Source: Alviniconcha marisindica | Lineage: Eukaryota > Mollusca > Gastropoda > Provannidae | DNA length: 64,000 bases | Direction: 5' to 3' | NCBI GenBank assembly: GCA_018857735.1 | Contig: JABMCL010000953.1 | Location: 107,501 to 171,500, forward strand | The notes under the pieces: generated by a model | Seen by the model: only the letters and a program-made list of their open reading frames with translations | Database searches by the model: none | What the model was told of the DNA's origin: nothing | Shown here: piece after piece, positions 19,797-61,000 of the stretch | How the letters are laid out: each line of letters opens with the position of its first letter | How positions within the stretch are numbered: position 1 is the stretch's first letter | Program-made: the position numbers and the translations under genes

Positions 19797-22700
19797 GTCA
19801 GTGACTTCTTTTTCCCTGCTCAGCAGTTGCTGATACTAGTGATAGTGGTGAAGCAGGTGTTCCTAAAGGTGCAAGTCCGTTTTGTATCCATGGATACAGA
19901 TAAAGATTGAATTACCCCTTTGTTAATCTGTAAAGCATGGCATAGATTACACGCTGCATGGTCCAGTCAAAATAAGTGTTTTCAGATCAGAATCTGGATC
20001 CATGTCAGTGCACAGGTATGGAATCATGCACCACTTATTTCCACTTTCGTGATTTTTTTTTACTGTGCCTGTATTCATACAAAGGGAATCACCACTTAGT
20101 AAGTGTAGGACACATTGTTTAGAATTAGATATTAGCGCCCGCAGGTCTTCCATGTTCTCAAAGTGTCAGAAGTGTGTGATAGTGCCTGTGTATACTGTGA
20201 GCATACATGTCTGTGTATGCAATCAGGGATTCAAGACTACTTTATTATCTCATTAGAGAAGTTAAAACATGGCTGAACATTAACCACACATGTGTTGTAT
20301 GTTTTGTGTATACATGTATGCATGCACTGCAGAGTGTATAAATGTGCATTCATTCATGAATACATGCATGTGTGTGTTGGCGGGGGGTGGTGGTTGTGGT
20401 GGTGGTGGACGGGGGGTACTGATGAGAGAAGGGGAGGAGGAGAGGTGAGAGTGGTATGGATAGATTTGAACAGGCAGAGTTCGGTTCGATCTTCACACGC
20501 AACTGCTCCTATACAACTGAACAGTTAGGCCACACAATTAAAATGCATAGTATCAGAAAGGGAGAGGTGGCATGGATATATTTGTCTTGCCAAGTAATGC
20601 TGAACGGAAACTCCTCGATGAGGCTTGATACAGTAAAGCTAAGCATCCACTACCGAGTACCCAGTACCATGGTTATAGTTACAGTGCAGTGATGGCAAGT
20701 CCCTTTGTTGCCCATTTACACAGCAGTAAGTGCTGAAGGGTTGGCCCCCATGGCCACCTTGGGCTGAGCATGCCAGCAATCTGGGACTACCTGGTAACCT
20801 GTGGATGGGTCTGGCAGAGTGATGTGGAGTCCACAGGTGACCCTGTACATGACATCACAATCCAGTGACTAATGGGGATTGGCATACCACCCAGGTGACA
20901 CGAGCTTGGGTACAACTGTAGGTTCCAAACTGGCCTGATTTGTTGATTAACAGCTTCACACCAAAAAGAAGCAATACCTGTAAACTGGTCTGTGGAGTTA
21001 GGCATTATGGCACTTACACTCCTGAATGCTTTGTTATTTTTGACATGGCCCATGTCTCTCTCTGGCTAGGGGAGCTAATAGGTTATCCACTGTGGTAAGA
21101 GACTGTGGTTAGATAACCTGTCCTGTAGTAAGAGACTAGTAAGATAACCTATCCTGTAGTAAGATAACCTGTGAAGTGGTGTGCTCCAGCCATGCAGACC
21201 CAAGCACTGGGACCCACACATCTGGGATTTAGTGTATCCAACTGGAGAGGTTGTCTAGTTGAACCACTTGCACTATCTGAGTGAAAGCGATCAACAACAA
21301 CATTTCGGTGTCCTTTGCCATCTGGGAGTCAACAGCGTCACTGTTCGGATCACCACTGACTGCTTTGAAAGCCTAATAAGAAACACCCAAACATTTCTTC
21401 AAACTGTTCACACATTATGCCTGTTGGGTTTGATCGTGCCTATTATGTTCACAAGTTTGATGACACTGAATAAAGAATTGCCTTGAGCAATGGGTTGAAC
21501 GAGTTCCGGTTTTACGAGTGATAATGTACATAAAAGTGGTGGAGTGAGAAAGGGTGAAACAACTCTGCTAAACTCGCTCTACCAAGGCCAGACAACTCCA
21601 CTAAACTCACTCTACCAAGGCCAGACAACTCCACTAAACTCACTCTACCAAGGCCAGACAACTCCGCTAACTTGACTCTACCAAGGCCAGACAACTCCAC
21701 TAAACTCACTCTACCAAGGCCAGACAACTCCGCTAAATTGACTCTACCAAGGCCAGACAACTCCGCTAAATTGACTCTACCAAGGCCAGACAACTCTGCT
21801 AAATTGACTCTACCAAGGCCCGACATGGCAGTGCCCTTGCATTAAGACATGTCACATGGACAGGGTGTGGGGCTGCTTGCTTGCTTGCTTGCTTAGTGTT
21901 CCCCTCCTAAATCTGAGGTTCATCCTGCAGTAGTGACAGTGTCAGCAGTCTGTGTGTGATCAGGGCCACAGAGCGTGGTCAGAAAAGTGTTCATCCTGCA
22001 GTAGTGACAGTGTCAGCAGTCTGTGTGTGATCAGGGCCACAGAGCGTGGTCAGAAAAGTGTTCATCCTGCAGTAGTGACAGTGTCAGCAGTCTGTGATCA
22101 GGGCCACAGAGCGTGGTCAGAAAGGTGTTCTTCCTGCAGTAGTGGCTCGTTGATCCACTGCTGCAGATGTTGGAAGCATGTGAACTGTGTTGTGAGGATT
22201 TTATCTGACAAACTGTTTTTGTTTGTTTCAGTCGTTCCAGGGCAGTCAAGGGCGTGCCTACTTGTTCAATTCAGTGTAAGTAGTATGTATATAAATATGC
22301 ATGTCTCTTCATCTTTTTCCGTCCATCATGAGTCAATGAAATTTACACAAACTTCGTTTTCTGAATATTTGTACAATGCTTTGTCTTCTTTCTCTTCTGT
22401 GTAGGTGATGAACTTCTTTATACAGAAGTTTATGTTCACACTGAGTGAGAGGGCATGTGTTTGTTCAGCTGTCAAATTATATATTGGAAATAAGATTTGT
22501 GTGTGTGTGGTTTTTTAACTAGGGGGGAAATCACTGGCCAGCAGGAATTCTTTCAGGCTGGTGGGCAGGGAGAAAAGGTTCAACTTGGTCAGGCTTGGTG
22601 ATATGCATAGTGATGGTGGTGTGGCAACTGTGGGTGTTGTTGCAGAGTGAATGGTGGTGACTGTGGTGTGGCAACTGTGGGTGTTGTTGCAGAGTGAATG

Positions 22701-23709
22701 GTGGTGACTGTGGTGTGGCAACTGTGGGTGTTGTTGCAGAGTGAACGGTGGTGACTGTGGTGTGGCAACTGTGGGTGTTGTTGCAGAGTGAATGGTGGTG
22801 ACTGTGGTGTGGCAACTGTGGGTGTTGTTGCAGAGTGAATGGTGGTGACTGTGGTGTGGCAACTGTGGGTGTTGTTGCAGAGTGAACGGTGGTGACTGTG
22901 GTGTGGCAACTGTGGGTGTTGTTGCAGAGTGAATGGTGGTGACTGTGGTGTGGCAACTGTGGGTGTTGTTGCAGAGTGAATGGTGGTGACTGTGGTGTGG
23001 CAACTGTTGGTATTATTGCAGAGTGAATGGTGATGATGGTGGTGTGGCAACTGTGGGTGTTGTTGCAGAGTGAATGATGGTGTGGTAACTGTGGGTGTTG
23101 TTGCAGACTGAATGGTGGTGATGGTGGTGTGGTAACTGTGGGTGTTGTAGCAGTGTGAATGGTGCTGTGGTAACTGTGGGTGTTGTTGCAGTGTGAATGG
23201 TGCTGTGGTAACTGTGAGTGTTGTTGCCGTGTGAATTGTGCTGTGGTAACTGTGGGTGTTGTTGCAGTGTGAATGGTGCTGTGGTAACTGTGGGTGTTGT
23301 TGCAGTGTGAATGGTGCTGTGGTAACTGTGGGTGTTGTTGCAGTGTGAACGTTGGCTGCGGTCCTGCAGAGGAGCGGGTCCTGCTGACTGGTCTTCATGC
23401 TGTGGCTGACATCTACTGTGAATGCTGCAAGACCACACTGGGCTGGAAATATGTAAGTGTTGGCCATTAGCAGTCCTTTTCCTCCCAGTCTTCTCATGCA
23501 CACTTCGCCCAGTGCTTTGTGCAGCTGTCTCATTATGTGCTACACATTTTGTCTGGGCTTTTCTTCTTCTTTTTTTCTGTCCTTTTTTCCCCCTTGCATT
23601 TTACTTTTTGCCTTGATTTAATGGTCTTGGTTGACTGGGCATTAAAAACCAGTAATCATTCTATCTTGTATTTTATTTAATTACATATCCTTCCTGCCCC
23701 AGTGTCTCC

Positions 23710-23764
<55 letters not shown>

Positions 23765-24031
23765 CTCTCTCTTCTCTCCCCTTCTCCCTCCCCCCCCCCC
23801 CCCCCCTCCCCACTTTGCCTCACTCGTTTTCCACTCTCGCACACTACTCTGTCTGCCAGCCCCACCTTTGTGTCCCACAGTACATAGGACTGGCTTATTG
23901 AGACCTGAAACTCTGAAATGCTGATGCTGATTGTTTTGCAGGAGCACGCCTTCGAGTCCAGTCAGAAGTACAAGGAGGGCAAGTACATCATAGAGCTGGC
24001 CCACATGATCAAAGACAATGGTTGGGAGTGA
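19692..24031 (+). CDS. YPEL: Yippee-like zinc-binding protein (YPEL1-4 type), complete, 4 coding exons
   Basis: The coding sequence joins 19692-19796, 22232-22275, 23344-23452 and 23942-24031 and gives 115 residues, against about 117-121 in vertebrate YPEL1-4. All introns are GT-AG and phases agree. The start ATG sits in a strong Kozak context (GCCACCATGG). The family zinc motif C-X2-C-X52-C-X2-C is intact (C19, C22, C75, C78). Recognisable blocks are [32 protein letters not shown], the [20 protein letters not shown] block and a C terminus ending KDNGW-E. YPEL proteins are small, extremely conserved Yippee-fold proteins found in the nucleus and at centrosomes or the mitotic apparatus; their biochemical role is not settled. 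Oddities: the N terminus is shorter than in vertebrates, there is a one-residue insertion near residue 12 (PNKC where relatives have PNC), and residue 77 is Cys where relatives have Asn (CECC rather than CENC). The paralogue (1, 2, 3 or 4) cannot be assigned; it is clearly not YPEL5. Confidence 0.95.
21555..21828. repeat. minisatellite, unit 31 bp, in YPEL intron
   Basis: The unit is CTCTACCAAGGCCAGACAAC then TCCACTAAACT. Nine copies alternating between ACTCA and TTGA variants. Confidence 0.94.
21917..22140. repeat. minisatellite, unit about 78 bp, 3 copies, in YPEL intron
   Basis: The unit is TTCATCCTGCAGTAGTGACA ... CAGAGCGTGGTCAGAAAAGTG, lying about 90 bases upstream of coding exon 2. Confidence 0.94.
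22232..22275 (+). CDS. YPEL: YPEL coding exon 2
   Basis: This 44-base exon encodes [14 protein letters not shown] plus two bases of a split Val codon. It is flanked by TTTGTTTCAG and GTAAGTAG. Its size, phase and content match the family exactly. Confidence 0.93.
22608..23343 (+). repeat. minisatellite ending in the YPEL exon 3 acceptor
   Basis: Two subfamilies. Units of 45 bases (TGTGGCAACTGTGGGTGTTG, TTGCAG, AGTGAATGGTGGTGAC) lie at 22620-23000; units of 38 bases (GTAACTGTGGGTGTTGTTGC, AG, TGTGAATGGTGCTGTG) lie at 23090-23343. The last copy is the real acceptor and exon start. About 17 copies. Confidence 0.95.
23344..23452 (+). CDS. YPEL: YPEL coding exon 3
   Basis: This 109-base exon completes the split Val codon and carries the second zinc-ligand pair (C75, C78). 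It ends at a GTAAGT donor after GWKY. The acceptor TTGTTGCAG and the first bases of the exon (TGTGAAC) are also the repeat unit of the minisatellite that fills the preceding intron. Confidence 0.93.
23716..23812. repeat. (CT)n and poly-C tract in the last YPEL intron
   Basis: CT repeats interrupted by TTCTCC segments, then about 20 C. Confidence 0.95.
23942..24031 (+). CDS. YPEL: YPEL terminal coding exon
   Basis: The exon follows a TGTTTTGCAG acceptor, encodes residues 87-115 and ends in TGA. It begins [13 protein letters not shown] and ends in the family-typical MIKDNGWE. The 3' UTR continues in the same exon. Confidence 0.94.
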
Positions 24032-24455
24032 GGGGTGCTCAGCCTCCCACACCCCTGGCCTACACCCACCCTATGGAGCACTCACTCTCACACCTAGCTA
24101 CAATGTAGGCCCTGGCTTGGCTGGCTGCTCGGCCCACGGGGGCTGCTGGTCGGCGGCTCTGTCGCCGTCCCTCCTGGCCAGCTTCACTCGGACTTCCCCT
24201 GCAGCCGCCAGTCGGCGGTGAGCGGGCCCCGTTACCAGCGCTGGCTTTGTGCTGCCTGTGACGCTGGGAGAGTTTCCCGCAGTTGTTCTTGTTTTCTGCC
24301 TTTTTTCCGTTTCCCTGGACACACAATGCCTAGTCCTGCCTGAAGCAAGCTGTACGTGGGGAGAGGGAAGCTAGATCAGAACATGAAGAACATCTGTAGA
24401 GTTGGGGGGAAAGCAAGTTTTCTTGAAATTTTTTGAAGAAAAACAAAAAAAGTTA

Positions 24456-24461
24456 AATAAA
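24456..24461 (+). promoter_or_regulatory. polyadenylation signal AATAAA, first after YPEL
   Basis: A canonical AATAAA lies 425 bases after the YPEL stop codon in an A-rich context. Further AATAAA hexamers in the same orientation occur at 26920-26925 and 32106-32111; the last is followed by a GT-rich stretch. Which site is used cannot be told from sequence. Confidence 0.5.
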
Positions 24462-26697
24462 TATACCCGCCAGTGCTTTCAATTCAAGATGGTTGGTTCT
24501 CAGTTGGGTTTTTTTTATATAATATTATTTGACCTAATAATTATTGTCTCATAGTCATATTCATCTCATTCTTCATTGCAGTCTGTATATTGGCCTACCA
24601 ATTGGTGTGAGTGTCCCACACATTCACACAAAATGGGAACTACTTGAAAAGAGTAAATGTTTTTGTGTGGCAAGAAAAAGCCTGGGAGTCTGTGTAGTGA
24701 TGAGTGTTTGTCTGGCCCTCCATTACTGAGGCCATCCATGGCCAAGCCTTTGACAGTGGCTGCTTTTCACACGCTGTAATCCGGGTCTTTGGAACTTGCT
24801 GTCAGGCTGTCCACTTTTGTACCAGTTTTGGTGACCTTGACTTAGCTTCAAGGGTCCTGGGGTGATCTGAAAGGTAACATCAAAAGAGTATTTTTTCAGT
24901 AAGTTCTTTTTCATTGCAGTTCAGACTGTGTGTGTGTAATTGTTTCCCATGTTGACAACATTGCACCCAGACCTGCCTTTGGTGGCCTTGCCCTCCATGG
25001 ACGGAGCCAACTGGTCTGTCTGCAGGCTTTGCACAGCCAGTGGATGGCCTTTGCTCAAAGACTGCTATTTTAATGAGTTCCTTCAAACTTTGCTGGCCCT
25101 GATATAACCCTACTGGTTGACTGGGCATACAAAACCAAGCCACTACTGCTACTTCAAACTTTGCCTGGTGATAACCTCCACTGAGCTTTAGGTTTTCATA
25201 TTCTCAGTGGAGTGTTAAGGCCACAGTTGTGTTTGAAGGTCAAGCTGACAGTTGTGTTTCCTTGACATGTTGTTACCATGTCAGTGGAAACTTTGCACAT
25301 GTGGACATAATCGTCAATGTAACACTGTCAGTAGAGCCATGGTCCAAGGGAGGTAATTGGCCTTGGCCTGCAATGCTCTCTAAAAAGCAAGCTCTTTGAA
25401 AATGTCATAATAATCTCTACCATTACCAAGCTGGATGACCTTTGACCCATTTTCTAGGCTGCAGGAAAGTTGGAAAAAGTGTGTGATTATTCCTGTGAAT
25501 GTGAGTCGGCTGAACAGTGGCTTTTCTTGTCGGTCCTTTTTCCCAGTCCCACCGCCCACTGCATGCCCTCTGTGTCAGAGACTGTCAGCTTGTCACCAGA
25601 GATGTTTGCCAGCATCACAGCTTTTGATACTGATGGGTGCTTCACAGCCCCGGCTGACTACACTTTCAGCCCACACACATGGTCTCCAGCGCCATCCTGC
25701 AGCGTGGCACCGTCGTGGAGAGCTGGATTAGGACCGTGGCCCTCACGCGCTGGGGCAGCGGAGTGCCTGCGTCAGTTTGCTCTCTGGTCAGCTTTGCCAG
25801 CCACTAGCACCAGATTTAACTCTGTAGTCCTGTGAGGATTCCCATCATCAACTTCTGTGGCTTCAGAACACTGATGACCACGGTTCCCTCGTGAACTCTT
25901 TGTAACCTTCACCAAGCCAAGTAGATTCCGTTGTTTGGTATCCGAGCAAAGCGGTGCGTGTTGGCATTGATGTCATCAGTGCAGCGCACAGTGTGCTTCT
26001 TGTTGCATCCGTTTGATGACTGTGTGTCATTATTGAAAGACTTGACTGCATTCACGAAAGGAACTGTTGCTGCCTTTTGGAAGTCCTGTGACTTGAGTGG
26101 CATATCTCAGAGTGTGCAAACACAGACTGCAGACTTTCCAAGTATTTGAAATTTTCACGATCTCACTTTTTCCAGAAAGGGAGAGAGAAGACAGCTGACT
26201 GCCGTTAGTTAATTGCGACTGACGTTTGTTGGCTGCTGGGTCACTGGTGTTGTGACTGCGTCTTCAGCAAGGAAGGACTGAGAAGCGTTGTCGGCAGCTT
26301 GCTAAGTGTGCTGGGGAAAGGCATGCGGCAGGGCCTGTTCCGGTGGAGAAGTCTTTGCTGGAAAAGCCCCTGTCTCTGCTCCCTACCATTGCATGCTTGC
26401 CCTCCAGAGTTCTTTCCCCTTGCCTTGCTTTGAGGACGCTCGCTGTCCTGCACCACCGTCTGTTTTGTTTCGGGGACCGGAGCGGACTTGTGTCGGGTAC
26501 CAACACTGGTCATGGTCCAGAGCAAAGCCCGATGTTTTCTGTGATCCGTTTTGCATTTGAGTCATTGTTGAAAAGCGAGATAGTTCAAGTTTTGTTTGAA
26601 AATTATTCATCTTTGCCAAAAAATATTTTCTGTTATAATTGTTACACCCATACCTTAAGTTTCTGACAGATGTGGTTTTGACTGAAGGTGAAGTTGG

Positions 26698-26953
26698 GGA
26701 GGGGGGGGGGGTGACCAGAGGGGGAGGAGAGCTGGTTTTGTGGGGGGGGGGGGGGGTGAATGACCAGAAAGTTGGGGGGGGCTAGTGTTCAGTCTGGTGC
26801 AACAATTCAAGCTAAACCTGTCTTTTTGTTTTGAAGTTTGCATTAAATAACAAGTGCATGCCTTGAAAAGAGAGGTGAACATCTGTGAGATGCACTGAAG
26901 TTTCAAAATGGTGGCTCATAATAAAGGTGAAACGGGGGGGGGGGGGGGGGGGG
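26698..26953. repeat. G-run cluster
   Basis: G-runs of about 10-14 at 26700, 26741 and 26773 (shorter) and about 20 at 26933-26953, separated by GTGACCAGA-type sequence. Confidence 0.9.
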
Positions 26954-27737
26954 AGTAGGTTTTGTCACAGTTGTCACTGTCCATGTGCTAGCCTGATGTC
27001 CAAAAGACTTCAGTCAAGCACTGTGTGAGTGGACCAGTCTCCAGTTTGTGACAGTTGAACTAAATGGGCTGGGGAAATGATCCCACGTTCATAAGACACC
27101 ACCAGTTGTTTGTGTGTTCAAACAAAATGAATATGCCCAGAACAAAGCCACCTAACCTTTTTTAGAGAGTTTGTGGTAAACTGTAGAAAAGTGAAACACC
27201 TTGCTGAAAAATGATTGTACACACCTGTAATGACATATCATCATTGTTCTTGAACAGTTCCAGGCAACGAAAGACAAATTCTGTCCTGTAACAGTGCAGA
27301 CAAATACTCTAACTGTAAGGAAACGGATCAGATCTATTGGTCAGCAGACCCTTGGGGCATGGGTGTGGAACTGTTTTAACATGTAGCCTGGTAGAGCAGG
27401 CAGGCTGCAGGACTTAGCCTAGACTGGATGAAAGCAGAATGAGAAGGTTGTGCCAACAGGCATTGGCGTTGAAGTTCCGGACCTACTGCCAGCACTATCA
27501 TCTACAGTGGATGTTCCAATCCATCAGGTATAAACTGGTGTTTGGTGTTGCTGTTCTGGCCCGCTGGGACACACTGCTGTGGTTTCTGTGGTGCCTACAA
27601 ACACCAGGCATGACGACAGAGAAAATGTAGCTTAAGAATGACACTGTTACTTGGATTAAGTCAGGAGAGTGACAAAGAGTGGGATGGAAAATTTCTGGTT
27701 TCACATTCCGGTCAAGTGGCTGCAGTGCCAGGGAAAG

Positions 27738-28140
27738 AAGAGACTGTGCAGAGCAGTGCTGACAGTGACAGCTGACTGTGCACAGCAATGCTGACAGTGA
27801 CAGCTGACTGTGCACAGCAATGCTGACAGTGACAGCTGACTGTGCACAGCAGTGCCGACAGTGACAGCTGACTGTGCACAGCAATGCTGACAGTGACAGC
27901 TGACTGTGCACAGCAATGCTGACAGTGACAGCTGACTGTGCAGAGCAGTGCCGACAGTGACAGCTGACTGCACAGCAATGCTGACAGTGACAGCTGACTG
28001 TGCACAGCAATGCTGACAGTGACAGCTGACTGTGCACAGCAATGCTGACAGTGACAGCTGACTGTGCACAGCAATGCTGACAGTGACAGCTGACTGTGCA
28101 CAGCAATGCTGACAGTGACAGCTGACTGTGCAGAGCAGTG
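27738..28140. repeat. minisatellite, unit about 33 bp, 12 copies
   Basis: The unit is GACTGTGCACAGCAATGCTG then ACAGTGACAGCT. Homogeneous apart from GAGCAGTGC variants. Confidence 0.95.
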
Positions 28141-30744
28141 ATGACAATGGCTGTGGGCCAAGCTTCCAACACAGACGTAGTACAGATAGCATTGAAATTT
28201 ATGGCAAATACCCCCTCCCCGCCCCCCCTTCAACTTTTGTGTCTAAGAGGCAGAGTTAGTGATGAAGGATCCTTCTCCTAAAACAGAACATTGGTGTCAC
28301 GTATGATGTTGTGTTGGAGAAAAGGTTGTGAAGACGCTAGCTTGTAGATTCAGTACCCCAGACTTTTGTGGATGCTTTTGTCACCTTGACTTGCACACAA
28401 CAATGGACCCTGGATTTCCCACCCCAGCCCCCAACCCACTCCCCATGTCATTTGAGTATTCTCAGTTGTTTGGCTTTTGTCCTTTTGAGTCCGGTTAGTT
28501 AGCCATTAGATTTTAACATCCTGTCAAACATTTGCACATGGTCACCTCAGGGTGATTTTCAATAGAGTATACAAAAATAACTTGCTTGTTTTTTGTTTTT
28601 GTTTTTTCACACTTAACCTCAAATTTAAAAAGAAAGATATGATGGATGCCATTTGTTTTGCGGGCCCCAAGCCTCTTTGCCTGGGCCGTTGTGAGAGCTG
28701 AAATGGGTGTCGGAGTTTGGATGCAGCACTGTGGGATTGCACAGGCAAGAGATGGACACACACACTGTTATGAGAATTAGCTTTTTTCTTATGTTCAGTT
28801 TTCAATTCTGTCATTGTATGTAGATGTGGAGGATACACAATGATAGCTTTGTCATGAAAAGTTGGTTTTAAGCTTTTGTTTAGTTCTTATGTGAGGTTAA
28901 CATTGCAATATGTGGCACACATGGGCCAAGACATTTTCTGTTACCTTCAGCTACTTTGCACTTTTTATAAGAAACGATTTTATGTAAGGAATTTTCATCC
29001 CATAATTATGTGAGACTATTAATGATACATAATATATATTTGCCTTGGATTTGCAATTTTGAAAACACTGGATGCATGAGTGCGTAAATGTTTTGGCGAT
29101 GCTTTGCTTGAGAACTGTACATTTGTGTGCCTGTGTTTATGTGTGAGAGAGGTTTCAAAACAAAGGTGTGTGTTCATTATTTTACAAGTCATGAAGTTCT
29201 GTGTCAAGTTTGCCCTCACTAAAGCTGGCTCTGTATCTGGCTGTGTAGGCCCACATGTTTTTCATTTGTGTACAAACTTGAAATCTCATTTTGTTCAACA
29301 TGCGTCAAGTATGACTTTGCTGTACATTTTCTTGTGGAGAACTTGTTGATTGTCAGTTCACAGTTCCATGTTTTCACTCTGTGAGTGGTGAGTCAGTGTC
29401 ACAAATCATATCTTTATCATGCTTGTGGAGTTGGAATCATTCATTCATCGCGCGGTTGGTCAGTGTCGGACAATTTCTGCTTCCTGTATTTGACTTGCAG
29501 AATGATATTTGATAGAAAGTGAGTAGGTAATGATCAGTGTTAGGCCAGTCCGCCATCTGTCCATCTCTTCTTCCCTGGCAAAAGCCTGGATGTTGATGCT
29601 GGGATTTTGTGGCTGACTGTAAATGTCACCAGTTCAAAGAGTGCGCCATCATCACAACCATCCTGAGTGACACTGTGTGTAATCCAAAAGACCACACAGA
29701 CCTGGTACGATGGCTGCACATTTATTGCTGACTGCACTTTACGCCAGGATGCTAGTTTCTTGACCTTGGGCTTCTTCAAGGGTGTGATACAAACAGTTCA
29801 GACTGAGATATTTCAGTGAGGTTTCATCCAATCAAGTACCTCGTGTGATTTTTATTTTACATGAACATGGTTTATGTTCAGACATCTTTCCCCAAACTCC
29901 ATTTTCAACCAAGAAATCAATATTGTCCTGGAGTGTTGATCAGAAATGAATGTTACTTAATTTCGGCCGCCCCCAGCCTCTCATTTTTATTTCAAGAGCT
30001 CTGTGTTTCAGTTGGAGTGTCCATCGTTCTGCCCCATACTGCATAGGCCCAGTTGACTAAGCATTGAAAACCAGAGAGTGTCTCTTCTTCAACACAAACC
30101 ATTATGGGGCGTTTGGGGAACACTGTAGAAGTGACCTGTTTTCATGGTCACAGCTGTGGATGGATGAAACTGGAAAGAAGCATTATCATAGCGTACTATT
30201 ATTCCATCCGATTCAAACGTATATTGATGAGAGCACATATTATGTGTGTGCTATTATGTCACTGTGGCCTATATTCAGTGGAGATGATCAATCGGTACAT
30301 TTCAGATTTAAACCAGCACCATTGTCCTGTTCTTGGATGCCATTTTAGTGAGGTCTGAATTTTGACCTGTACCCGTTTTTGTCAGTTTTGTTGACAATGG
30401 CCCATCTCTAGATAACCAAAATTACAGTTGAAGATTGTATTATCTTGAACTATATTGTTTTGAATGTGAGTCTAGGCATTTGTTTTTCATGTGTTCTGTT
30501 TGTTTTACCTGGTTTTCTGTCAGTTACATGTTTCTCTGTTTTGAGCATTACCTAGTTGTTTTTTCATTGTGGAGGAACGATTGTTTGGTTCCAGTACACA
30601 CTACCGCTCAGTGGAGCAAGAGAAACACAATGCTGGTTGTTGTGGGGGGTTTTCACAGCTTAGAAATTTATCAGGGTTTTTTGGTTTTTGTTTGTTGTTG
30701 TTGTTTTATTTATTGTTTTTCTTCAAAGCTCTCCAAGCTTAGAG

Positions 30745-36390: not shown

Positions 36391-36392
36391 GA

Positions 36393-44200: not shown

Positions 44201-47200
44201 TGTTTTCATTCACAGAAGAAGAAAAGTCTAAAAATCATTCACACATGTATATGCTTGCACATACACACATATGCATGCATACATATAAACACAGACGTAT
44301 GCATATGCTTGCATGCACATTCATGCATGCACACATACACACCCAGTACACTTGTGTTAAAATTTTGTTTTGTTGAGAGACCAAGTGGAGATGAAAGCTG
44401 ACGTTGCGTTGTGGTGCCTGTGACAGGTGGTGCTGCAGTCTGTGCTGGTATACGGGGCTGCTGCTGTCGACAGGAAGGTTCTCAACCAAGCCATTTACCG
44501 GAAACTGCGCCTCGTCTGGATCTCAGTAATACCCCTTGTCACCCCACCAGCCCCTCCTGAAGGGTTCAGCATCATCTTAGTATCACCCTTTGTCATCTCA
44601 CCAGCCCCTCCTGAAGGGTTCAGCATCATCTTAGTATCACCCTTTGTCATCTCACCAGCCCCTCCTGAAGGGTTCAGCATCATTTTAGTATTGTACAAGC
44701 TGTTGCTTCTTTGTTCTGGTTGCAGGCAAATTTTAAAGCCTGTCTGCACGATTTGGAGCTTTCTTGTTTTTGCTTCCTTGTTTCTTTATGAAACAGGGTT
44801 ATACTGTAATTGGTGGAAACCTAACTGAGTGTGAAATACCTTTAAGTTTAAAGATCATGGGACATACTCATTGCAAATTTTGCATAAATATTGCATTTGT
44901 AGGGTGCCGTACACATTTTGGTCATATTGCTGTGTCACCGTACACAAAATGACTGAACACCAATTAGTATGAAACCGAATCCTAATGAACCCATATCTGG
45001 AAGAAGAATCGGTCCCCGTATCAGACTGGCCAGAAATCGCAAACTGATCAGTAATAATTTCCAGTCAGCTGACTGAGGACACGTTCCCAGACATGGAATT
45101 TGGAACGATCCATTGTGCCTAGTAAAATTGTCAGTGTTTATCATAATTTACTCAAAGGCAGAAGACTACAAAACCAAAAACAAAATGTATGTTGACACCA
45201 AATACGAAAGAGAGAAAATGGCGGCAGCCTCAGTTTCAACTTCTTCTCAATACTAGATCCCGCAGTAGACAAGAACTGTGTTTGCCAACATCATCTGCTG
45301 CACAGTTATCTTCAGGAAAATGATGCCGTGTATGATGTTTCAATCTATTCAAACTTTTTGGGAACTGCAAATTTACTGAACGTTTCCACTTTTTTAGTTG
45401 TGCACGGGTAGACTTCCGCTTAACTATTTTCGTCCGCTCACTTTATAGATCATGAGTTACACTCAAGTTACTCCGTCATTTTGTCTTTGTGAACTAATTC
45501 TAGGTTATGCTGTACGCATTTTTTGTACCACTGACACAAAATATGTAATGTTTCGCGTCAGTTGATGCAAATCTCTAAAAGGCAGCATGACCCCTGAAAG
45601 ATGTAGTGAACCATCATACTTTTTTCCCCATGTAACTTTGGTTGCTGCTTGGCCACTTGTGCAGTACACTGCATAGTATGGCTGTATCACAGTTTTGTTA
45701 CCAGTGACCACGTGAGCAGTATACTGCTTAGAGTGGCTGTATCACAGTTTTCATACCAGTGTCCATGTGTGCAGCATGCTGCTTATTGTGGCTGTATCAC
45801 AGTTTTCATACCATTCACAGCATTGTGCGGCTATATGACAGTTTTGTTTTGATCCTGTAACGGTGTTTTGTTGGTGGTGCTGCAGGTTCCCGGCTCACTG
45901 GAGAAGTACCTGACGCTGATGGAAAAGGTGGAGGGCTCTGCCTTCAGCGTGTGCTGCGTGGCCGTAGTGCTGCGCTACCTCGCAGCCACCAAGAACAAAG
46001 CTCTCATCGACAAGTATAAGGTGCTTGCATCTTCCCATGCTTTTGAGGACTGACATGAAAATGTGTACTTGCATGTAGGAATTGGGATTTATTGGACCTC
46101 TCCAAACATCCCAGATTTACTGGAGGCAGTTTGTTTACCTTTGAAATTGAGATGAGTGCTGCATGACAGTGGCTTGAGGTCAATTCACTGAGACAGTTCG
46201 TGTGCAGTGAGACAGTTCATGTGCAGTGAGACAGTTCATGTGCAGTGAGGCAGTTCATGTGCAGTGTGAGACAGTTCATGTGCAGTGAGGCAGTTCATGT
46301 GCAGTGAGCAGTTCATGTGCAGTGAGGCAGTTCATGTGCAGTGAGGCAGTTCATGTGCAGTGAGGCAGTTCATGTGCAGTGAGGCAGTTCATGTGCAGTG
46401 AGACAGTTCATGTGCAGTGAGGCAGTTCATGTGCAGTGAGATGGTTCAGGTGCAATAATAGCCTTTATTGATTTTAGTGAGAATATTAATGTAGGACCCA
46501 GCACATGTTGAAGTCAGTGATGTATGATGATGATAGCCCATGTTGAAGTCAGTGATGTATGATGATAGATAGCCCATGTTGAAGTCAGTGATGTATGATG
46601 ATAGACAGCCCATGTTGAAGTCAGTGATGTGTGATGATGATAGCCCATGTTGAAGTCAGTGATGTGTGATGATGATAGCCCATGTTGAAGTCAGTGATGT
46701 ATGATAGACAGCCCATGTTGAAGTCAGTGATGTATGATGATAGACAGCCCATGTTAAAGTCATTGAAGTGAGGTTTGTTACTTTGTGCAGGGAGCATACC
46801 TAGAGCTGTACCTGAAGCAAGTCCTTGCCAGTCGCACGAGACCCCCGCATGCTGTTGTGGTGAGTGCTCACGCTGGCCCCCGTGTCACCTCCACGCTTGA
46901 CGGGCTGTGAAAACCACACTTAATTACTCATCAGACACATTATTGTCACCTCCACACTTGACAGGCTGTGAAAGCCACACTTAATTACTCATCAGACACA
47001 TTATTGTCACCTACACACTTGACGGGCATTAAAAACCACAATTACTCATCAGACACATCATTGTTACCTACACACTTGACGGGCATTAAAAACCACACTC
47101 ATCAGACACATCATTGTCACCTACATGCTTGACGGGCTGTGAAAGCCACACTTAATTACTCACCAGACACATTGTCACCTACACACTTGACAGGCATTAA

Positions 47201-50200
47201 AAACCACAATTACTCATCAGACACATCATTGTTACCTACACGCTTGATGGGCTGTGAAAACCACACTTAATTACTCATCAGACACATCATTGTCACCTCC
47301 ACACTTGACAGGCGTTCAAAAACAATTACTTGTCAGACACATTGTTGGTGTCGCCCACATGCTTGTTTAGACTTGCCTGTGCCATATCCGGCTTCCAGTA
47401 GTTGTTGAGCTAGTCCTTCTGCACATGCTGTTCCCATGGAAAAGACTTGAATATGAAGGTCTCCACTTGATACAGTTCGGTTTGCTACAGAGAGTGGTTT
47501 GGTTTGTGTGAATATGAAGGTCTCCACTTGATACAGTTCGGTTTGCTACAGAGAGTGGTTTGGTTTGTGTGGATATGAAGGTCTCCACTTGATACAGTTC
47601 GGTTTGCTACAGAGAGTGGTTTGGTTTGTGTGGATATGAAGGTCTCCACTTGATACAGTTCGGTTTGCTACAGAGAGTGGTTTGGTTTGTGTGAATATGA
47701 AGGTCTCCACTTGATACAGTTCGGTTTGCTACAGAGAGTGGTTTGGTTTGTGTGAATATGAAGGTCTCCACTTGATACAGTTCGGTTTGCTACAGAGAGT
47801 GGTTTGGTTTGTGTGAATATGAAGGTCTCCACTTGATACAGTTCGGTTTGCTACAGAGAGTGGTTTGGTTTGTGTGAATATGAAGGTCTCCACTTGATAC
47901 AGTTCGGTTTGCTACAGAGAGTGGTTTGGTTTGTGTGAATATGAAGGTCTCCACTTGATACAGTTCGGTTTGCTACAGAGAGTGGTTTGGTTTGTGTGAA
48001 TATGAAGGTCTCCACTTGATACAGTTCGGTTTGCTACAGAGAGTGGTTTGGTTTGTGTGGAACAGGAGTCGTCACATGAGATACTGCGCCACTGCAGTCA
48101 CGAGGACTTCAGGGGGCAGGTGTTACCAGCTGCACAAAAGGCCATGCTCAGAAACCCAGAAATCATCCTCAGTAGTGAGTATGCCACCACTTGTCTTCCA
48201 CAGATAACCAGCCCCACAGTGGTGTTCCTTTTAAAAAATAGCTCTCTTTCTGTCATTGGTTGTTTTTTTGGCCAAGGTTCACATTCTGTTCTGGGTTCAT
48301 GTTGACAGGATAAATGGCAGATAGCTTGGTGTTCTGCTGTGTCCCACACCCCCTCCCACCCCTCCAGCAGATAGCTTGGTGTTCTGCTGTGTCCCACACC
48401 CCTTCCCACCCCTCCAGCAGATAGCTTGGTGTTCTGCTGTGTCCCACACCCCTTCCCACCCCTCCAGCAGATAGCTTGGTGTTCTGCTGTGTCCCACACC
48501 CCCTCCCACCCCTCCAGCAGATAGCTTGGTGTTCTGCTGTGTCCCACACCCCTTCCCACCCCTCCAGCAGATAGCTTGGTGTTCTGCTGTGTCCCACACC
48601 CCTTCCCACCCCTCCAGCAGATAGCTTGGTGTTCTGCTGTGTCCCACACCCCTTCCCACCCCTCCAGCAGATAGCTTGGTGTTCTGCTGTGTCCCACACC
48701 CCCTCCCACCCCTCCATTTTATAGTTTTTGTTTTTTAGTACTTCATTGACTTGTTGGAAATTTGGGTTGCCATACTAGGGTAAGAATGCAGGGCATGTGT
48801 TGGAATTTGATGATTTCATTGCTCATGATGGTCTTTCATCAGGGTGGTCTTTCATTGTTTGGTCTCTCATCATGATGGTCTTTCATCAGGGTAGTCTCTC
48901 ATCAGGGTAGTCTTTCATTGTTTGGTCTCTCATCATGATGGTATTTCATCAGGGTGGTCTCTCATCAGAGATGGTCTTTCATCAGGGTGGTCTTTCATTG
49001 TTTGGTCTCTCATCATGATGGTCTTTCATCAGGGTGGTCTCTCATCAGGAAAGTCTGTTATCAGGGTGGTCACTCAACAGGGTGATCTGTGGTCTCTCAT
49101 TATGGTGGTGTTTTATTGGGGTGATCTTTAGTCTCACATCAGGGTGGTCTTTGATCAGGGTGGTCTTTGGTCTTTGATCAGGGTGGTCTTTGGTCTTTCA
49201 TATTTCATAGGGGTTCCGTATGGTAAAGATCCTGTTTTCATAATGAACTGTACTCATGACAATTTCTGTACTTTCAGCTGTGGGCAAAATGCTGAGTCAT
49301 GTGAGTGTGGACCTTAGTCAGTATGCTGCTGACATTGGAAAGCTTTTTGGGGGTAAGAGACCAGGCTTTGGATTTAAGTCTAATTGTGTGTGTAGGGGGG
49401 AAGGTTATGCAAGTCTACAATACAAAAATATGTTACACTAGAGTCTGAGCCAGCCACCAGTGCATTCCACCATTTGGTGATCTGTCCTTGGCAGAAGAAG
49501 GCAGAACAGTAATACAGATAAGATTGGCCATAAAGAATATATATAACAATTGGAAAATGCATATTTAACGCAGGCACTAGGGGAGGTACTAGCCATCCCT
49601 ACCTGATCCAGTTTACGTGCGTCCTGTTGTAACAAAACAGTTTCTGTATTTACAGTGGATAGTTTGTTGTTTGTTTGCCTTAGTTTCTGTGTTTACAATG
49701 GATAAAAAATCTGAAACAGAATGAGGCCCAGAGCACTCATGCAGAACCAACCCACAAGGGAGGGAGTTAGTGCTTGAAATACCGAACACAAGTACAACAA
49801 GACGTGAGTCACCTATAGTAACTCACCTGGCATGTGTGTAAATACAAGGTACAGAAACTCCACCACAGGTACAACAAAGACCTGAGTAACCTATGGTAAC
49901 TCTCACCTGGCATGCATGTAAATACGGTGTACATAAACTTCATATATACCTTGCATTTACACGCACGCCAGGTGAAAGTTACCATAGATGACTCGGGTCT
50001 TTCTTGTTGTACTTATGTATTTCAAATGCTAATTAACCCCCTTTGTGTTCATTTTACAGTGGAGAGTTTGTTGTTTGTTTGTCTTAGTTTCTGTGTTTAG
50101 AGGTTGTTGTTTGGTTGCCTTCCTCAGCAAAATCCTGAGGTTTGCCCAGTGTTGGGTGAAGAGGTAGTGTGTGCAGCTGTTTCCCCACACCTGTACCAGT

Positions 50201-53200
50201 ATACTGTAATACATACAAGTGCTCTGCTGCCTGCCACTCCAACAGCTGCACTCTCACTTGAAGGGTTTTAGTAAAGCAGTTCACTTTGTCCTGCAGATTA
50301 CTGTAGCTGAAAGTAACCTGGACATGGACTGTTAACAGATACTGCTTTAGCTCCAGCACTGCGTCTACTGACAGTAAGGTGTCAGTGATGACAGTGTCGG
50401 TAGCCTCAGATGGGGGCCATGCGGTGGATAGTAAAAGTGGATGTGTGAAGTGAGCGCGTCTTGTTGCAGCCCCCATTGTGTCCAAAGATGAAGGGACACG
50501 CAGAGAGGCTGTGGAGGGTGTGAAGAACCTGGCCGTGCAGTGCAGCGACCCCGGGGCAGTGGAAAAGCTGGTCAAGTACTTCTTTGCTGTTCTCAATGGT
50601 AACACATCCTTGCTGTTCTCAATGGTAACACATCCTTGCTGTTCTCAATGGTAACACATCCTTGCTGTTCTCAGTGGTAACACATCCTTGCTGTTCTCAA
50701 TGGTAACACTTCTTTGCTGTTCTCAATGGTAACACATCCTTGCTGTTCTCAATGGTAACACTTCTTTGTTGTTCTCAATGGTAACACTTCTTTGCTGTTC
50801 TCAATGGTAACACATCCTTGCTGTTCTCAATGGTAACACATCCTTGCTGTTCTCAGTGGTAACATGTTCTTGCTGTTCTCAATGGTAACACATCTTTGCT
50901 GTTCTCAATGGTAACACCTTGCTGTTCTCAATGGTAATGCTTCTTGTTGTTCTCAGTGGTAACACATCCTTGCTGTTCTCAATGGTAACACATCCTTGCT
51001 GTTCTCAGTGGTAACATGTTCTTGCTGTTCTCAATGGTAACACATCTTTGCTGTTCTCAATGGTAACACCTTGCTGTTCTCAATGGTAATGCTTCTTGTT
51101 GTTCTCAGTGGTAACACATCCTTGCTGTTCTCAGTGGTATTGGTAACACTTCCTCGCTGGTCTCAGTGGTAACACATCCCTGCTGTTCTCAGTGGTAACA
51201 CTTCTTTGCTGTTCTCAATAGTAACACCTTGCTGTTCTCAATGGTAACACCTTGCTGTTCTCAATGTTAACACTTCCTTGCTGTTTTCAATGGTTACACC
51301 TTTTTGCTGTTCTCAATGGTAACACTTCTTTGCTGTTCTCAATGGTAACACATCCTTGCTGTTCTCAGTGGTAACACTCCCTTGCTGGTCTTAGTGGTAA
51401 CACTCCCTTGCTGGTCTCAGTGGTAACACTCCCTTGCTGGTCTTAGTGGTAACACTCCCTTGCTGGTCTCAGTGGTAACACTCCCTTGCTGGTCTTAGTG
51501 GTAACACTCCCTTGCTGGTCTGCATGGTAACACTTCCTTGCTGGTCTCAGTGGTAAAACTTCCATGCTGGTCTCAGTGGTAACACTCCCTTGCTGGTCTT
51601 AGTGGTAACACTCCCTTGCTGGTCTCAGTGGTAACACTCCCTTGCTGGTCTCAGTGGTAACACTTCCATGCTGGTCTCCGTGGTTACACTTCCTTGCTGC
51701 ACTCAGAAGGTTCTCCTTGTTTTTATGTAAAAGAGCTGATCGTCCAGTTGTTTCTTGTAAAATTCTCACATTGATTTGGGCCTTTATTTATATATAGAAG
51801 TGTTGTTAGTTAAATCATTTGTGTGTTTGGCTCTGCTATATTGCCTGTCCTTTTGTGACCTTGAGGTTCGGAAGGGAAGCTGACAGTGGTAGATCAGAAG
51901 ATGAGTGTGCTACAAGGCATCGGGAACTTGTTCTACAACACGGTCAGTGGGACATCCACACTCCAGGACTTGGCCTCCAAGGTCGTCGAACTCTTCCTGC
52001 CAATGCTGCAGCAGGAAGGTGAGTTATACCCCTTCTCCACCATCGCTTTCCCCAGTGGTGTGGCTGTATCGGGTCACTGTGTGTGTTTGTGACTGACTGC
52101 CCTCGCTGTCCCCACTGGTGCAGCTGTATCAGGTCACTGTGTGTGTTTGTGACTGACTGCCCTCGCTGTCCCCAGTGGTGTGGCTGTATCGGGTCACTGT
52201 GTGTGTTTGTGACTGACTGCCCTCTCTGTCCCCACTGGTGGGCTGTATCGGGTCACTGTGTGTGTTTGTGACTGTGACTGCCCTCGCTGTCCCCACTGGT
52301 GCGCTGTATCAGGTCACTGTGTGTGTTTGTGACTGTGACTGCCCTCACTGTCCCCACTGGTTTCGGCTGTATCAGGTCACTGTGTGTGTTTGTGACTGTG
52401 ACTGCCCTCACTGTCCCCACTGGTGCGCTGTATCAGGTCACTGTGTGTGTTTGTGACTGTGACTGCCCTCGCTGTCCCCACTGGTGGCTGTATCAGGTCA
52501 CTGTGTGTGTTTGTGACTGTGACTGCCGTCACTGTCCCCACTGGTGGCTGTATCGGTCACTGTGTGTGTTTGTGACTGTGACTGCCCTCGCTGTCCCCAC
52601 TGGTGCGCTGTATCAGGTCACTGTGTGTGTTTGTGACTGTGACTGCCCTCACTGTCCCCACTGGTGCAGCTGTATCAGGTCACTGTGTGTGTTTGTGACT
52701 GTGACTGCCCTCGCTGTCCCCACTGGTGCGTATCAGGTCACTGTGTGTGTTTGTGACTGTGACTGCCCTCCTGTCCCCACTGGTGCGCTGTATCAGGTCA
52801 CTGTGTGTGTTTGTGACTGTGACTGCCCTCACTGTCCCCACTGGTGCAGCTGTATCAGGTCACTGTGTGTGTTTGTGACTGTGACTGCCTCCTGTCCCCA
52901 CTGGTGCGCTGTATCGGTCACTGTGTGTGTTGTGACGTGACTGCCCTGTCCCCACTGGTGCGGCTGTATCGGTCACTGTGTGTGTTTGTGACTGTGACTG
53001 CCCTCACTGTCCCCATGGTTGCGCTGTATCAGGTCACTGTGTGTGTTTGTGACTGTGACTGCCCTCGCTGTCCCCACTGGTGCGCTGTATCAGGTCACTG
53101 TGTGTGTTTGTGACTGTGACTGCCCTCGCTGTCCCCACTGGTTGCAGCTGTATCAGGTCACTGTGTGTGTTTGTGACTGTGACTGCCCTCGCTGTCCCCA

Positions 53201-55029
53201 CTGGTTGCGGCTGTATCAGGTCACTGTGTGTGTTTGTGACTGTGACTGCCCTCGCTGTCCCCACTGGTGGCTGTATCGGTCACTGTGTGTGTTTGTGACG
53301 TGACTGCCTCCTGTCCCCACTGGTGGCTGTATCGGGTCACAGTGTGTGTTTGTGACTGTGACTGCCCTCGCTGTCCCCACTGGTCGGCTGTATCGGGTCA
53401 CTGTGTGTGTTTGTGACTGTGACTGCCCTCGCTGTCCCCACTGGTTGCAGCTGTATCAGGTCACTGTGTGTGTTTGTGACTGTGACTGCCCTCGCTGTCC
53501 CCACTGGTGGCTGTATCGGGTCACTGTGTGTGTTTGTGACTGTGACTGCCCTCGCTGTCCCCACTGGTGGCTGTATCGGGTCACAGTGTGTGTTTGTGAC
53601 TGTGACTGCCCTCGCTGTCCCCACTGGTTGCAGCTGTATCAGGTCACTGTGTGTGTTTGTGACTGACTGCCCTCGCTGTCCCCACTGGTGTGTGAGGTGA
53701 TTGTACTTTCAGAGTCTGCTGTTATGTAGTTATAGGTTAACAAGGATAGACAGCACAAATAGCACAATACATTTCAGCAATCCATAAGTTTGGGCAGCAG
53801 TCACTAGAATGCACAGATGCAGACAGGGACCCAATACAGCAGACTCATAGTGCAGTCACCTACCACACCACTGGGGACAGTGAGGGCGGGCCCAGTGACA
53901 AACACACACAGTAACCCGATGGAAAAAGTTGTCTTAGCAGAAGGGTGGTTCTAAAAAAAAGGGAGGGGAGGGGTCTTTAAATTCTGTGAGGGATTCCACT
54001 GGACCTCCAGCATAATGTTAGGTGTAGACTGGATAGTGTGCTGTTGTGTTGTGATTCAGTCCAAGAGGGGACACTGGGTAATGTGGTACACTGTTGTGAT
54101 TCAGTCTATGAAGGGACACTGGGTAATGTGGTACACTGTTGTGATTCAGTCCAAGAGGGGACACTGGGTAATGTGGTACACTGTTGTGATTCAGTCCTTG
54201 AGGGGAAACTGGGTAATGTGGTACACTGTTGTGATTCAGTCTTGAGGGAACTGGGTAATGTGGTACACTGTTGTGATTCAGTCCAAGAGGGGACACTGGG
54301 TAATGTGGTACACTGTTGTGATTCAGTCCTTGAGGGGAAACTGGGTAATGTGGTACATGAAGTGGTGTGTATGTTGTGATTCAGTCCAAATGGGGGGACA
54401 CTGGTGTAATGTGGGTTTTTTACACAGGGTTTGGGGTTGTGATTCAGTCCTTGAGGGGAAACTGGGTAATGTGATACACTGTTGTGATTCAGTCCTTGAG
54501 GGGAAACTGGGTAATGTGGTACACGGTTGTGTTGTGATTCAGTCCTTGAGGGGAAACTGGGTAATGTGATACACTGTTGTGATTCAGTCCTTGAGGGGAA
54601 ACTGGGTAATGTGGTACATCTGGTTGTGATTCAGTCCATGGGGAACTGGTAATGTGGTACACAGTTGTGTTGTGATTCAGTCCATGAGGGGAAACTGGGT
54701 AATGTGGCACATGTTGTGTTGTGATTCAGTCCATGAGGGGACACTGGGTAATGTGGCACACTGTTGTGTTGTGATTCAGTCCATGAGGGGACACTGGGTA
54801 ATGTGGCACACTGTTGTGTTGTGATTCAGTCCATGAGGGGACGCTGGTGCATGCTCTGGCCATGATGTCTCTCTGGTGCAGCAGGTTCTACACACAAGTA
54901 CCTGACAAACTTATCCTGTGGTTTGAGGTCAGTCCACCTGTCTAGCCACCCTGGATTTCTGCCTCCCCCCCCCTCTCTCTCTCTCTCTTTTCTCATCTCT
55001 CTCTCTGTGTATCTGTCTCTCTCTGTCTG

Positions 55030-55094
<65 letters not shown>

Positions 55095-58000: not shown

Positions 58001-61000
58001 CATGCCCCCTGTTCACATCACTATAGTATCAACATCCCTGCTCCCTGTTCATGTCACTGGTATCTACATCATGCCCCCAGTTCATGTCACTGCCCCCGGT
58101 TCATGTCACTGTGGTATCTACATCATGCCCCCTGTTCACATCACTATAGTATCAACATCCCTGCCCCCTGTTCATGTCACTGTGGTATCTCCATCCCTAC
58201 CCCCTGTTCATGTCACTGTGGTATCTAACCCCCCTTTCCCTAACCCCCCCCGTTCATGTCACTGTGGTATCTACATCCCTACCCCCTGTTCATGTCACTG
58301 TGGTATCTACATCCCTACCCCCTGTTCACATCACTATAGTATCAACATCCCTGCCCCCTGTTCATGTCACTGTGGTATCTACATCCCTGCCCCCTGTTCA
58401 TGTCACTGTGGTATCTACATCCCTGCCCCCTGTTCATGTCACTGTGGTATCTACGCAGTGGGGAAGACCCACAAGCACTCCACCCTATATCTCAAGAGTT
58501 TTCACAGGACCGAAGTGGAAACGCAGCATGCGTGATAACTGTGTACATTGTGATGATTGCAGATTTCCAGTGGGGCCATGTCCCAGGATAGTAATGTGTA
58601 TGATAACTGTGTACATTGTGATGATTGCAGATTGCCAGTGGGGCCATGGCCCAGGACAGCAGTGTGTGTGATAACTGTGTTCATGTTGATGATTGCACAA
58701 ACCAGTGTGGTGATGATTGCAGAAACCAGTGTGTGTGGTAACTGTGTTCATGGTGATGATTGCAAAAACCAGTGTGTGTGGTAACTGTGTTCATGGTGGT
58801 GATTGCAGAAACCAGTGTGTATGGTAACTATGTTCATGGTGGTGATTGCAGACACCAGTGTGTGTGGTAACTATGTTCATGGTGATGATTGCAGAAACCA
58901 GTGTGTGTGGTAACTTGTTCATGGTGATGATTGCAGAAACCAGTGTGTGTGGTAACTGTGTTCATGGTGATGATTGCAGAAACCAGTGTGTGTGGTAACT
59001 GTGTTCATGGTGATGATTGCAGAACCAGTGGGGATTGCAAACCAGTGTGTGTGGTAACTGTGTTCATTGTGATGATTGCAGAAACCAGTTTTGGTGATGA
59101 TTGAAAGAAACCAGTGTGTGTGGTAACTGTGTTCATGTGATGATTGCAGAAACCGTTGTGGACTGTGTTCAGGTGATGATTGCAAAAACCAGTGTGTGTG
59201 GTAACTGTGTTCATGGTGATGATTGCAGAAATTGTCCATGGTGATGATTGCAAGAAACCAGTGTGTGTGGTAACTGTGTTCATGTGATGATTGCAGAAAC
59301 CAGTGTGTGTGGTAACTGTGTTCATGTGTGATGATTGCAGAAACCAGTGTGTGTGGTAACTGTTTCATGGTGATGATTGCAGAAACCAGTGTGTGTGGTA
59401 ACTGTGTTCATGTTGATGATTGCAGAAACCAGTGGTGATGATTGCAGAAACCAGTGTGTGTGGTAACTGTGTTCATTGTGATGATTGCAGAAACGTGTGT
59501 GTGTGGTAACTGTGTTCATGGTGATGATTGCAAAAACCAGTGTGTGTGGTAACTGTGTTCATGTTGATGATTGCAGAAACCAGTGGTGATGATTGCAGAA
59601 AACCAGTGTGTGTGGTAACTGTGTTCATGTGATGATTGCAGAAACCAGTGTGTGTGGAACTGTGTTTAATGTTCAGGTGTGATGATTGCAGAAACCAGTG
59701 TGTGTGGTAACTGTGTTCATGGTGATGATTGCAGAAACCAGTGTGTGTGGTAACTGTGTTCATGGTGATGATTGCAGAAACCAGTGTGTGTTAACTGTGT
59801 TGTGATGTCATGGTGATGATTGCAGAAACCAGTGTGTGTGGTAACTGTTCATGGTGATGATTGCAGAAACCAGTGTGTGTGGTAACTGTGTTTATGGTGA
59901 TGATTGCAGAAACCAGTGTGTGTGGTAACTGTGTTCATGGTGATGATTGCAGAAGCCAGTGTGTGTGGTAACTGTGTTCATGGTGATGATTGCAGAAGCC
60001 AGTGTGTGTGGTAACTGTGTTCATGGTGATGATTGCAGAAGCCAGTGTGTGTGGTAACTGTGTTCATGGTGATGATTGCAGAAGCCAGTGTGTGTGGTAA
60101 CTGTGTTCATGGTGATGATTGCAGAAGCCAGTGTGTGTGGTAACTGTGTTCATGGTGATGATTGCAGAAGCCAGTGTGTGTGGTAACTGTGTTCATGGTG
60201 ATGATTGCAGACACCAAGCTGGGCCCGTTCTGGGCCATGATTCTCGACAGCAGCAAGCAGTGGATAGTCAGTGACAAGTTTCTGGCCTCCGCCGCCGATG
60301 AGAGTAAGTGGTTGTCAGTCTTGGTCAGGGTTAGGATTAGCATGCTGTAATTATGTGAGGGGGACATTCTGAAAGACATGGTAAGCAGCTGCAGCTGGGT
60401 ATTTTGGGCCATGAATTTCAGGATGGAATGTTTCAGTGGTTGGTCAGAGAAAAAAGTCATTTGTGCTCAGTCTTCTTCTTCTTCTTAACCTCTGTGTGTG
60501 TGTTTTTGTTGTTTTTGTCATTTTCCCCTGCTGTTCAGCCCTGTGCAGTCTGTCTTCAGACCTTCAGCTAACACGGTCACCTTTCAGTTCTACTGGACTG
60601 TCTGGTGTCGTAAGACCATCACCAAAAACAGTCACTTTCCCCTTGCTGTCTAGTCTGGTGTCTTCAGACCATCACCTAACCACCTTTCAGTTCTACTGGG
60701 CTGTCTGGTGTCTTCAGACCATCACTAACATTGTCTCTTTCCCCCTGCTGTCCAGCCCTGTGCAGTCTGGTGTCTGTGGCCCAGCGCCTCATCCTGGACT
60801 TCCCCAACAAAATGACGGAGGCCACATCACAGCCGTACTACCACGCCCTCATCTTCACGCTCACTCGTCGCTCCAGCACGGTGCGCGTGCATAGCATCTC
60901 TGCCGTTCGCAAGCTGCTGTCTATGCTGGGGGGCGCCCAGATCTCGCTGGCCCTCATCTCCGAGTTCAAGTCCGTGCTGGACACACAGAATGTGAGTTGC

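What the first reader, a model, noticed from the sequence alone, without database searches (positions are those of the whole stretch)
22608..60770. Minisatellites repeatedly nucleated on splice junctions: tandem copies of a gene's own splice sites
In six introns of two unrelated genes the repeat unit includes the adjoining splice site plus 6-19 exonic bases. These are YPEL exon 3 (acceptor), GCN1 exons 5 and 10 (donors) and GCN1 exons 12, 15 and 16 (acceptors). Other minisatellites in the same introns do not include exon sequence, so both kinds occur; I could not compute a chance expectation. In animals, decoy splice sites next to real ones would normally be selected against. Known mechanisms such as tandem AGGT duplication leading to new introns could start such arrays, but a genome-wide habit of growing arrays from exon edges would be new to me. 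It may reflect repair slippage at exon borders, or selection keeping exons intact while the intron side expands.
Basis: partly seen in the sequence, partly recalled or inferred. Interest (0 to 1): 0.9.

Follow-up and report, generated by a model that had tools for sequence, protein, structure and literature searches.

The report
Intron minisatellites overlapping exon edges
In two genes of an unnamed organism, six tandem-repeat arrays in introns carry copies of a real splice site plus a few coding bases; the copies are real, but chance placement in once-short introns may be enough to explain how often this happens.

Summary
Of 40 splice junctions in YPEL and the start of GCN1, six have copies of their junction-spanning 24-mer inside the adjoining intron; the other 34 have none. 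They are YPEL exon 3 and GCN1 exons 13, 16, 17 (acceptors) and GCN1 exons 6, 11 (donors) in my numbering. Exon depth is about 6 nt in three arrays and 14-21 nt in three. Of 118 copies, 109 keep the splice dinucleotide.

Nucleation on junctions is not established. That ignores that an array grows from one unit in a once shorter intron. Placing single units in collapsed introns gives 3.2-3.3 expected (P 0.09). Only if exon overhang beyond about 20-30 nt is taken as not tolerated does expectation fall to 1.4-2.1 (P 0.002-0.014). The 17 other arrays are compatible with uniform placement.

Most likely these are ordinary minisatellites from random tandem duplication, with the coding edge kept as innermost copy. 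Genome-wide and literature checks could not be run (tools unanswered).

The parts
22616..23349 (+). YPEL intron 2 minisatellite (units 38-47 bp), about 16 copies carrying ttgttgcag|TGTGAA or AGTGAA; the last copy is the real exon 3 acceptor
22232..22275 (+). YPEL coding exon 2
23344..23452 (+). YPEL coding exon 3 (acceptor inside the array's last unit)
44427..44525 (+).
44520..44691 (+). 54-bp minisatellite, 3.2 copies, starting on the last 6 nt of exon 6 and its donor; two decoy donors, in frame and open
50470..50598 (+).
50578..51699 (+). 26-bp minisatellite, about 43 copies; unit = last 21 nt of exon 11 + gtaac
54047..54847 (+). 45-50-bp minisatellite, about 17 copies; unit carries gattcag|TCCATGAGGGGACACTGG = exon 13 acceptor + 18 nt
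54830..54927 (+).
58533..60216 (+). 43-bp minisatellite (68-bp units at 58533-58697), about 35-39 copies of gattgcag|A..CCA; the last copy is the real exon 16 acceptor
60211..60303 (+).
60524..60774 (+). degenerate array delimited by eye, period about 105-115: two upstream copies of the exon 17 acceptor region, then the real one; 14 exon nt exact, up to 19 by reading
60756..60991 (+).
47448..48059 (+). 61-bp minisatellite that stops 6 nt before exon 9 (near miss, not counted)

Best explanation
These are ordinary intronic minisatellites. A stretch of some tens of bp was duplicated in tandem at an essentially random place in an intron that was then much shorter than today, and the copies multiplied by slippage or unequal repair. 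In six of 23 cases the first duplicated stretch straddled an exon edge, so each new copy carried the splice site and some coding bases. Coding selection keeps one intact edge, which is necessarily the innermost copy; all extra copies lie on the intron side. Shown: the arrays, the shared unit, intact decoys, placement compatible with random seeding. Inferred: the duplication mechanism, the shorter ancestral introns, and that the splicing machinery uses the innermost site because that gives the normal-length exon (exon definition and proximity).
For: Unit-level null expects 3.2-3.3 straddling arrays of 23 and six are seen, P 0.09; automatic calling gives 5 of 24-30 with P 0.13-0.21; for arrays with 14 or more exon nt, 3 are seen and 2.6 expected without a cap. 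The 17 non-straddling arrays fit uniform spread over collapsed introns, KS P 0.35, and all 23 do too if overhang up to near the unit length is allowed, P 0.35. Arrays fill 52% of intron sequence (12,524 of 23,874 bp) in 14 of 20 introns, and the non-array part is 163-491 bp in 9 of those 14 and 661-1,866 bp in the other 5. The array units do not form one related family: among 33 hand-entered units (e17 not among them) the best pair, YPEL e3 and GCN1 e16, scores 38, which 2 of 20 shuffled sets reach over all pairs, although only 2 of 300 shuffles of that pair itself do.
Against: All six overhangs are 21 nt or less (P 0.006 under uniform depth). If deeper overhang is truly not tolerated, the expectation falls to about 1.4-1.5 and six becomes an excess (P 0.002-0.0025); with that cap even the three deep cases are in mild excess (0.72 expected, P 0.034). 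The positional test with overhang capped at 10 or 20 nt also rejects uniform placement (P 0.008 and 0.028). Using decoys would be harmful: 26 of 28 tested decoys, in five of the six arrays, give a frameshift or an early stop, so tolerance needs accurate site choice, which is not shown. Predicted RNA accessibility does not explain it: the real site is more open than 39 of 42 decoys in e11 and 14 of 16 in e13, but less open than all 17 in Y3 and all 29 examined (of 39) in e16. The e17 real acceptor scores low (2.2) while other AGs in its array score up to 9.5.
Confidence: 0.6

Rival explanations
1. Exon-anchored arrays. Seeding is random, but arrays that include an exon edge last longer, because one unit is held constant by coding selection and keeps acting as a master copy for re-expansion or conversion, while purely intronic arrays decay or are deleted.
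For: Excess under a capped overhang. In e13, copies nearest the exon match it best (rho 0.56; far-end reference -0.59; median over copies 0.23); in e11 rho 0.41.
Against: No such gradient in Y3 (0.02; the far-end reference gives 0.57) and a weak, non-significant one in e16 (0.20); in e11 the far-end reference also gives 0.33. Homogeneity of straddling arrays does not differ detectably from others (P 0.40, on TRF match percentages copied by hand for 5 of 6 and 15 of 17 arrays).
Confidence: 0.2
2. Exon borders are a preferred start for tandem duplication, for instance through repair or slippage at exon edges.
For: Array-level shuffle P 2e-4; capped-overhang P 0.002-0.014.
Against: The array-level shuffle is a poor null for arrays that grew from one unit; the 17 non-straddling arrays do not crowd exon edges significantly.
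Confidence: 0.13
3. The arrays have an RNA role: units with acceptor and donor-like sites act as micro-exons, recursive sites or decoys that tune output of the two genes.
For: Y3 and e16 units carry both a strong acceptor (best 10.6 and 9.7) and a donor-like GTG|gtaact (7.5); decoys are not eroded.
Against: In five arrays, 9 of 10 splice-dinucleotide bases lie above the mean conservation of the unit, but they rank in the middle and one (e16, 0.865) lies below it, so there is no clear constraint; donor-like sites are common here (15% of window GTs score 4 or more); most decoy use would cause a frameshift or early stop.
Confidence: 0.05
4. Assembly artefact.
For: No reads available to exclude it.
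Against: Copies differ from one another in all five arrays examined (mean column conservation 0.90-0.96), and the junction copies merge into intact coding exons.
Confidence: 0.02

Closest known systems
Human CBS 31-bp VNTR across an exon-intron boundary (exon 13/intron 13); recalled, no paper seen
   Same: A minisatellite whose unit contains a donor site and exon bases, with many decoy donors on the intron side
   Different: One locus in one gene; here six junctions in two neighbouring genes, four of them acceptors
Human CBS 844ins68; recalled, no paper seen
   Same: Tandem duplication across an intron-exon acceptor; one copy is used and the variant is nearly silent
   Different: A single duplication, not an array
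Intron creation by tandem duplication of AGGT-containing segments; recalled, no paper seen
   Same: Tandem duplication copies splice signals
   Different: No sign found here that introns were created: the arrays sit beside intact exon edges in a continuous reading frame. Age of the introns was not tested

Membership tests
Intronic minisatellite (VNTR) | Head-to-tail units of about 10-100 bp, several to many copies | tested here: met
   periods 26-54 in five arrays, 3 to 43 copies; e17 is degenerate with a period of about 108 set by eye
Exon-boundary VNTR of the CBS type | The repeat unit spans an exon-intron boundary | tested here: met
   firm for e11, e13, e17, shallow (about 6 nt) for Y3, e6, e16
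Exon-boundary VNTR of the CBS type | Length varies between individuals | not testable with these tools
   One sequence only
Introner or other mobile source of introns | The arrays share a related sequence | tested here: not met
   best pair of 33 units within the range of shuffled sets (2 of 20 reach it); e17 not included
Genome-wide nucleation at splice junctions | More straddling arrays than unit-level chance | tested here: inconclusive
   P 0.002 to 0.21 depending on overhang cap and array calling; one window only

The most novel reading that the evidence does not exclude
In this lineage exon edges act as permanent master copies: arrays that catch a splice junction cannot decay, so they accumulate, and introns fill with dozens of intact decoy copies of their own splice sites, which the splicing machinery reliably ignores, even in a conserved gene such as GCN1.
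Probability: 0.22. Interest if true: 0.75.

Novelty: new member of a known kind. Interest (0 to 1): 0.42.

Why it matters
If the excess is real genome-wide, these introns are natural experiments on splice-site choice: in four of the arrays 15 to 41 intact copies of one site stand in a row and only the innermost appears correct. They would show directly how much proximity and exon definition contribute. If the excess is not real, the case is a useful warning that shuffling whole arrays overstates overlap with exon edges.

Tried and rejected
Array-level shuffling as sole null: set aside, since array length is a product of growth. A shared repeat family or introner: not supported (the 13-mer TGTGGTAACTGTG common to the Y3 and e16 units is within the range of shuffled sets; one neighbouring pair in the 5' YPEL intron, u5a and u5b, does look related, 0 of 300 shuffles). 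Hiding of decoys by RNA structure: mixed, rejected as a general rule. Exon 9 as a seventh case: its array stops 6 nt before the exon and has no junction 24-mer copy. A deeper exon 16 copy in the 68-bp units at 58533-58697: alignment score 19, below the best unrelated intron (22), not claimed. Homogeneity difference of straddling arrays: none detected. More genes in the window to enlarge the sample: I read an ORF listing for 1-19000 and 24100-41000 and could place no further multi-exon gene; no family search was run on those frames apart from the two Mutator-like pieces. Organism: guessed to be a mollusc, looked up one name, no evidence gained.

Limits: the null uses a hand-made list of 23 arrays, in which the e17 array (60539-60774, period 108) and the intron 17 array (61900-62972, period 31) were set by eye because the printed repeat table was cut. 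The null requires 6 intron nt, which the e11 unit (5 intron nt) does not meet; relaxes this to 5 with the same result. The overhang-depth P entered e11 as 20. The automatic check (24-30 arrays) finds 5 of the 6 and includes a 5' YPEL intron whose ends were placed by eye. The splice-site scores come from small matrices trained on 18 donors and 16 acceptors of this window; only the top sites were printed. The e17 array is absent, and e6 from 29's significance step and 43. The exon 9 and 13 acceptors were chosen partly by recalled resemblance to human GCN1; the frame supports both.

Full report
What is there. The window carries YPEL (4 coding exons, 19692-24031) and the first part of GCN1 (18 exons from 41196, the last cut short in my model) on the + strand. 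That the organism is an animal, perhaps a mollusc, is my inference; it was not tested. The 18 GCN1 exons join into one open frame of 679 aa with the GCN1 N-terminal domain PF24993 (E 3e-40). The only solved-structure match is a 2,898-residue chain found in 15 entries (8i9x_LR, E 6.4e-11, labelled 'Ribosomal protein L19'); I read nothing more from that label. YPEL matches PF03226. I count 23 minisatellites in 14 of the 20 introns, filling 12,524 of 23,874 intronic bp (52%).

The observation. I took a 24-mer across each of the 40 junctions and looked for it in the adjoining intron with up to 6 mismatches. Six junctions have copies: Y3 acceptor 16, e6 donor 2, e11 donor 40, e13 acceptor 15, e16 acceptor 37, e17 acceptor 2. 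The other 34 have none, and shuffled introns give at most 0.05. With a looser copy count (up to 9 mismatches), the splice dinucleotide is intact in 15 of 17, 2 of 2, 41 of 42, 16 of 16, 33 of 39 and 2 of 2 copies (Y3, e6, e11, e13, e16, e17), 109 of 118 in all. On the exon side alone, e11 (21 nt exact), e13 (17 of 18) and e17 (14 exact) stand clear of matches to other introns; Y3, e6 and e16 share only about 6 exon nt and do not.

Chance. But an array starts as one unit and grows afterwards, so its present length should not enter. Collapsing every array to one unit and letting a unit fall anywhere as long as 5 or 6 nt stay in the intron gives 3.2-3.3 expected (P 0.09). For overlaps of 14 nt or more, 3 are seen and 2.6 expected. 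An automatic repeat call at four score thresholds finds 5 straddling of 24 to 30 arrays, 2.8-3.2 expected (P 0.13-0.21). The 17 other arrays are compatible with even spread between exons (KS P 0.35, mean 0.41 where 0.5 is expected), which argues against strong general attraction to exon edges.

Against this reading: the six overhangs are all 21 nt or less, which is unlikely (P 0.006) if depth were uniform. With a 21-nt cap the three deep cases alone give P 0.034. With the automatic array calls and a 20-nt cap P is 0.005-0.012, and the positional test with overhang capped at 10 or 20 nt gives P 0.008 and 0.028. The cap was set after seeing the data, and the window was picked for this feature, so I treat the excess as unproven.

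Do decoys matter? I followed 28 decoys through the coding sequence (six nearest each for Y3, e11, e13, e16; two each for e6 and e17). 26 shift the frame or meet an early stop; only the two e6 decoys are in frame and open. By small matrices from this window, the best decoys score like or above their real sites in Y3, e11, e13 and e16; the real e6 donor (0.4) and e17 acceptor (2.2) score low themselves. In the five arrays examined, 9 of 10 dinucleotide bases lie above the mean conservation of their unit but rank in the middle; the tenth, the last G of the e16 acceptor, is at 0.865. So no cleansing of decoys is visible, and no clear extra conservation either. Predicted local pairing gives opposite answers in different arrays. 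How the right copy is chosen is therefore inferred: in every array the real site is the innermost one, which is what exon definition and proximity would favour.

Precedents (recalled, no paper could be opened): a 31-bp VNTR across an exon-intron boundary and the 844ins68 acceptor duplication, both in human CBS. If recalled rightly, they show that single cases of both kinds exist and are tolerated. What might be new here is the frequency, six of 40 junctions in two genes, and that rests on one window; whether it is in print could not be searched.

Verdict: real, unusual to look at, and a member of a known kind. The evidence does not yet separate random seeding in short, repeat-rich introns from a modest true preference for, or persistence at, exon edges.

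Noticed in passing
36774-37148 and 37478-37819 (- strand), array 37121-37521: Decayed Mutator-like transposase in two pieces (PF20700, E 3e-25 and 6.3e-7) with seven near-identical 57-bp repeats between them that, by reading, carry its own coding sequence: another array that begins on coding sequence, here in a mobile element.
   Followed up: partly
38117-39338: 33-bp minisatellite of about 35 copies (1.2 kb) on a long minus-strand open frame (SSPVSSVPSSI repeats).
   Followed up: no
YPEL unit 22616-23349 and GCN1 unit 58708-60216: The two arrays share TGTGGTAACTGTG, which looks donor-like and branch-like; 2 of 20 shuffled sets score as high over all pairs, but only 2 of 300 shuffles of this pair, so probably chance.
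   Followed up: yes
54047-54847: The 45-bp unit of the exon 13 array is open in the exon's frame, by reading; the six nearest decoys tested nevertheless meet early stops.
   Followed up: partly
13001-13351 (- strand): Open frame that reads like the end of a LINE-type reverse transcriptase (recalled resemblance, not searched).
   Followed up: no
1-12900: Very dense minisatellites and microsatellites upstream of YPEL, with no gene that I could place by reading the ORF list.
   Followed up: no
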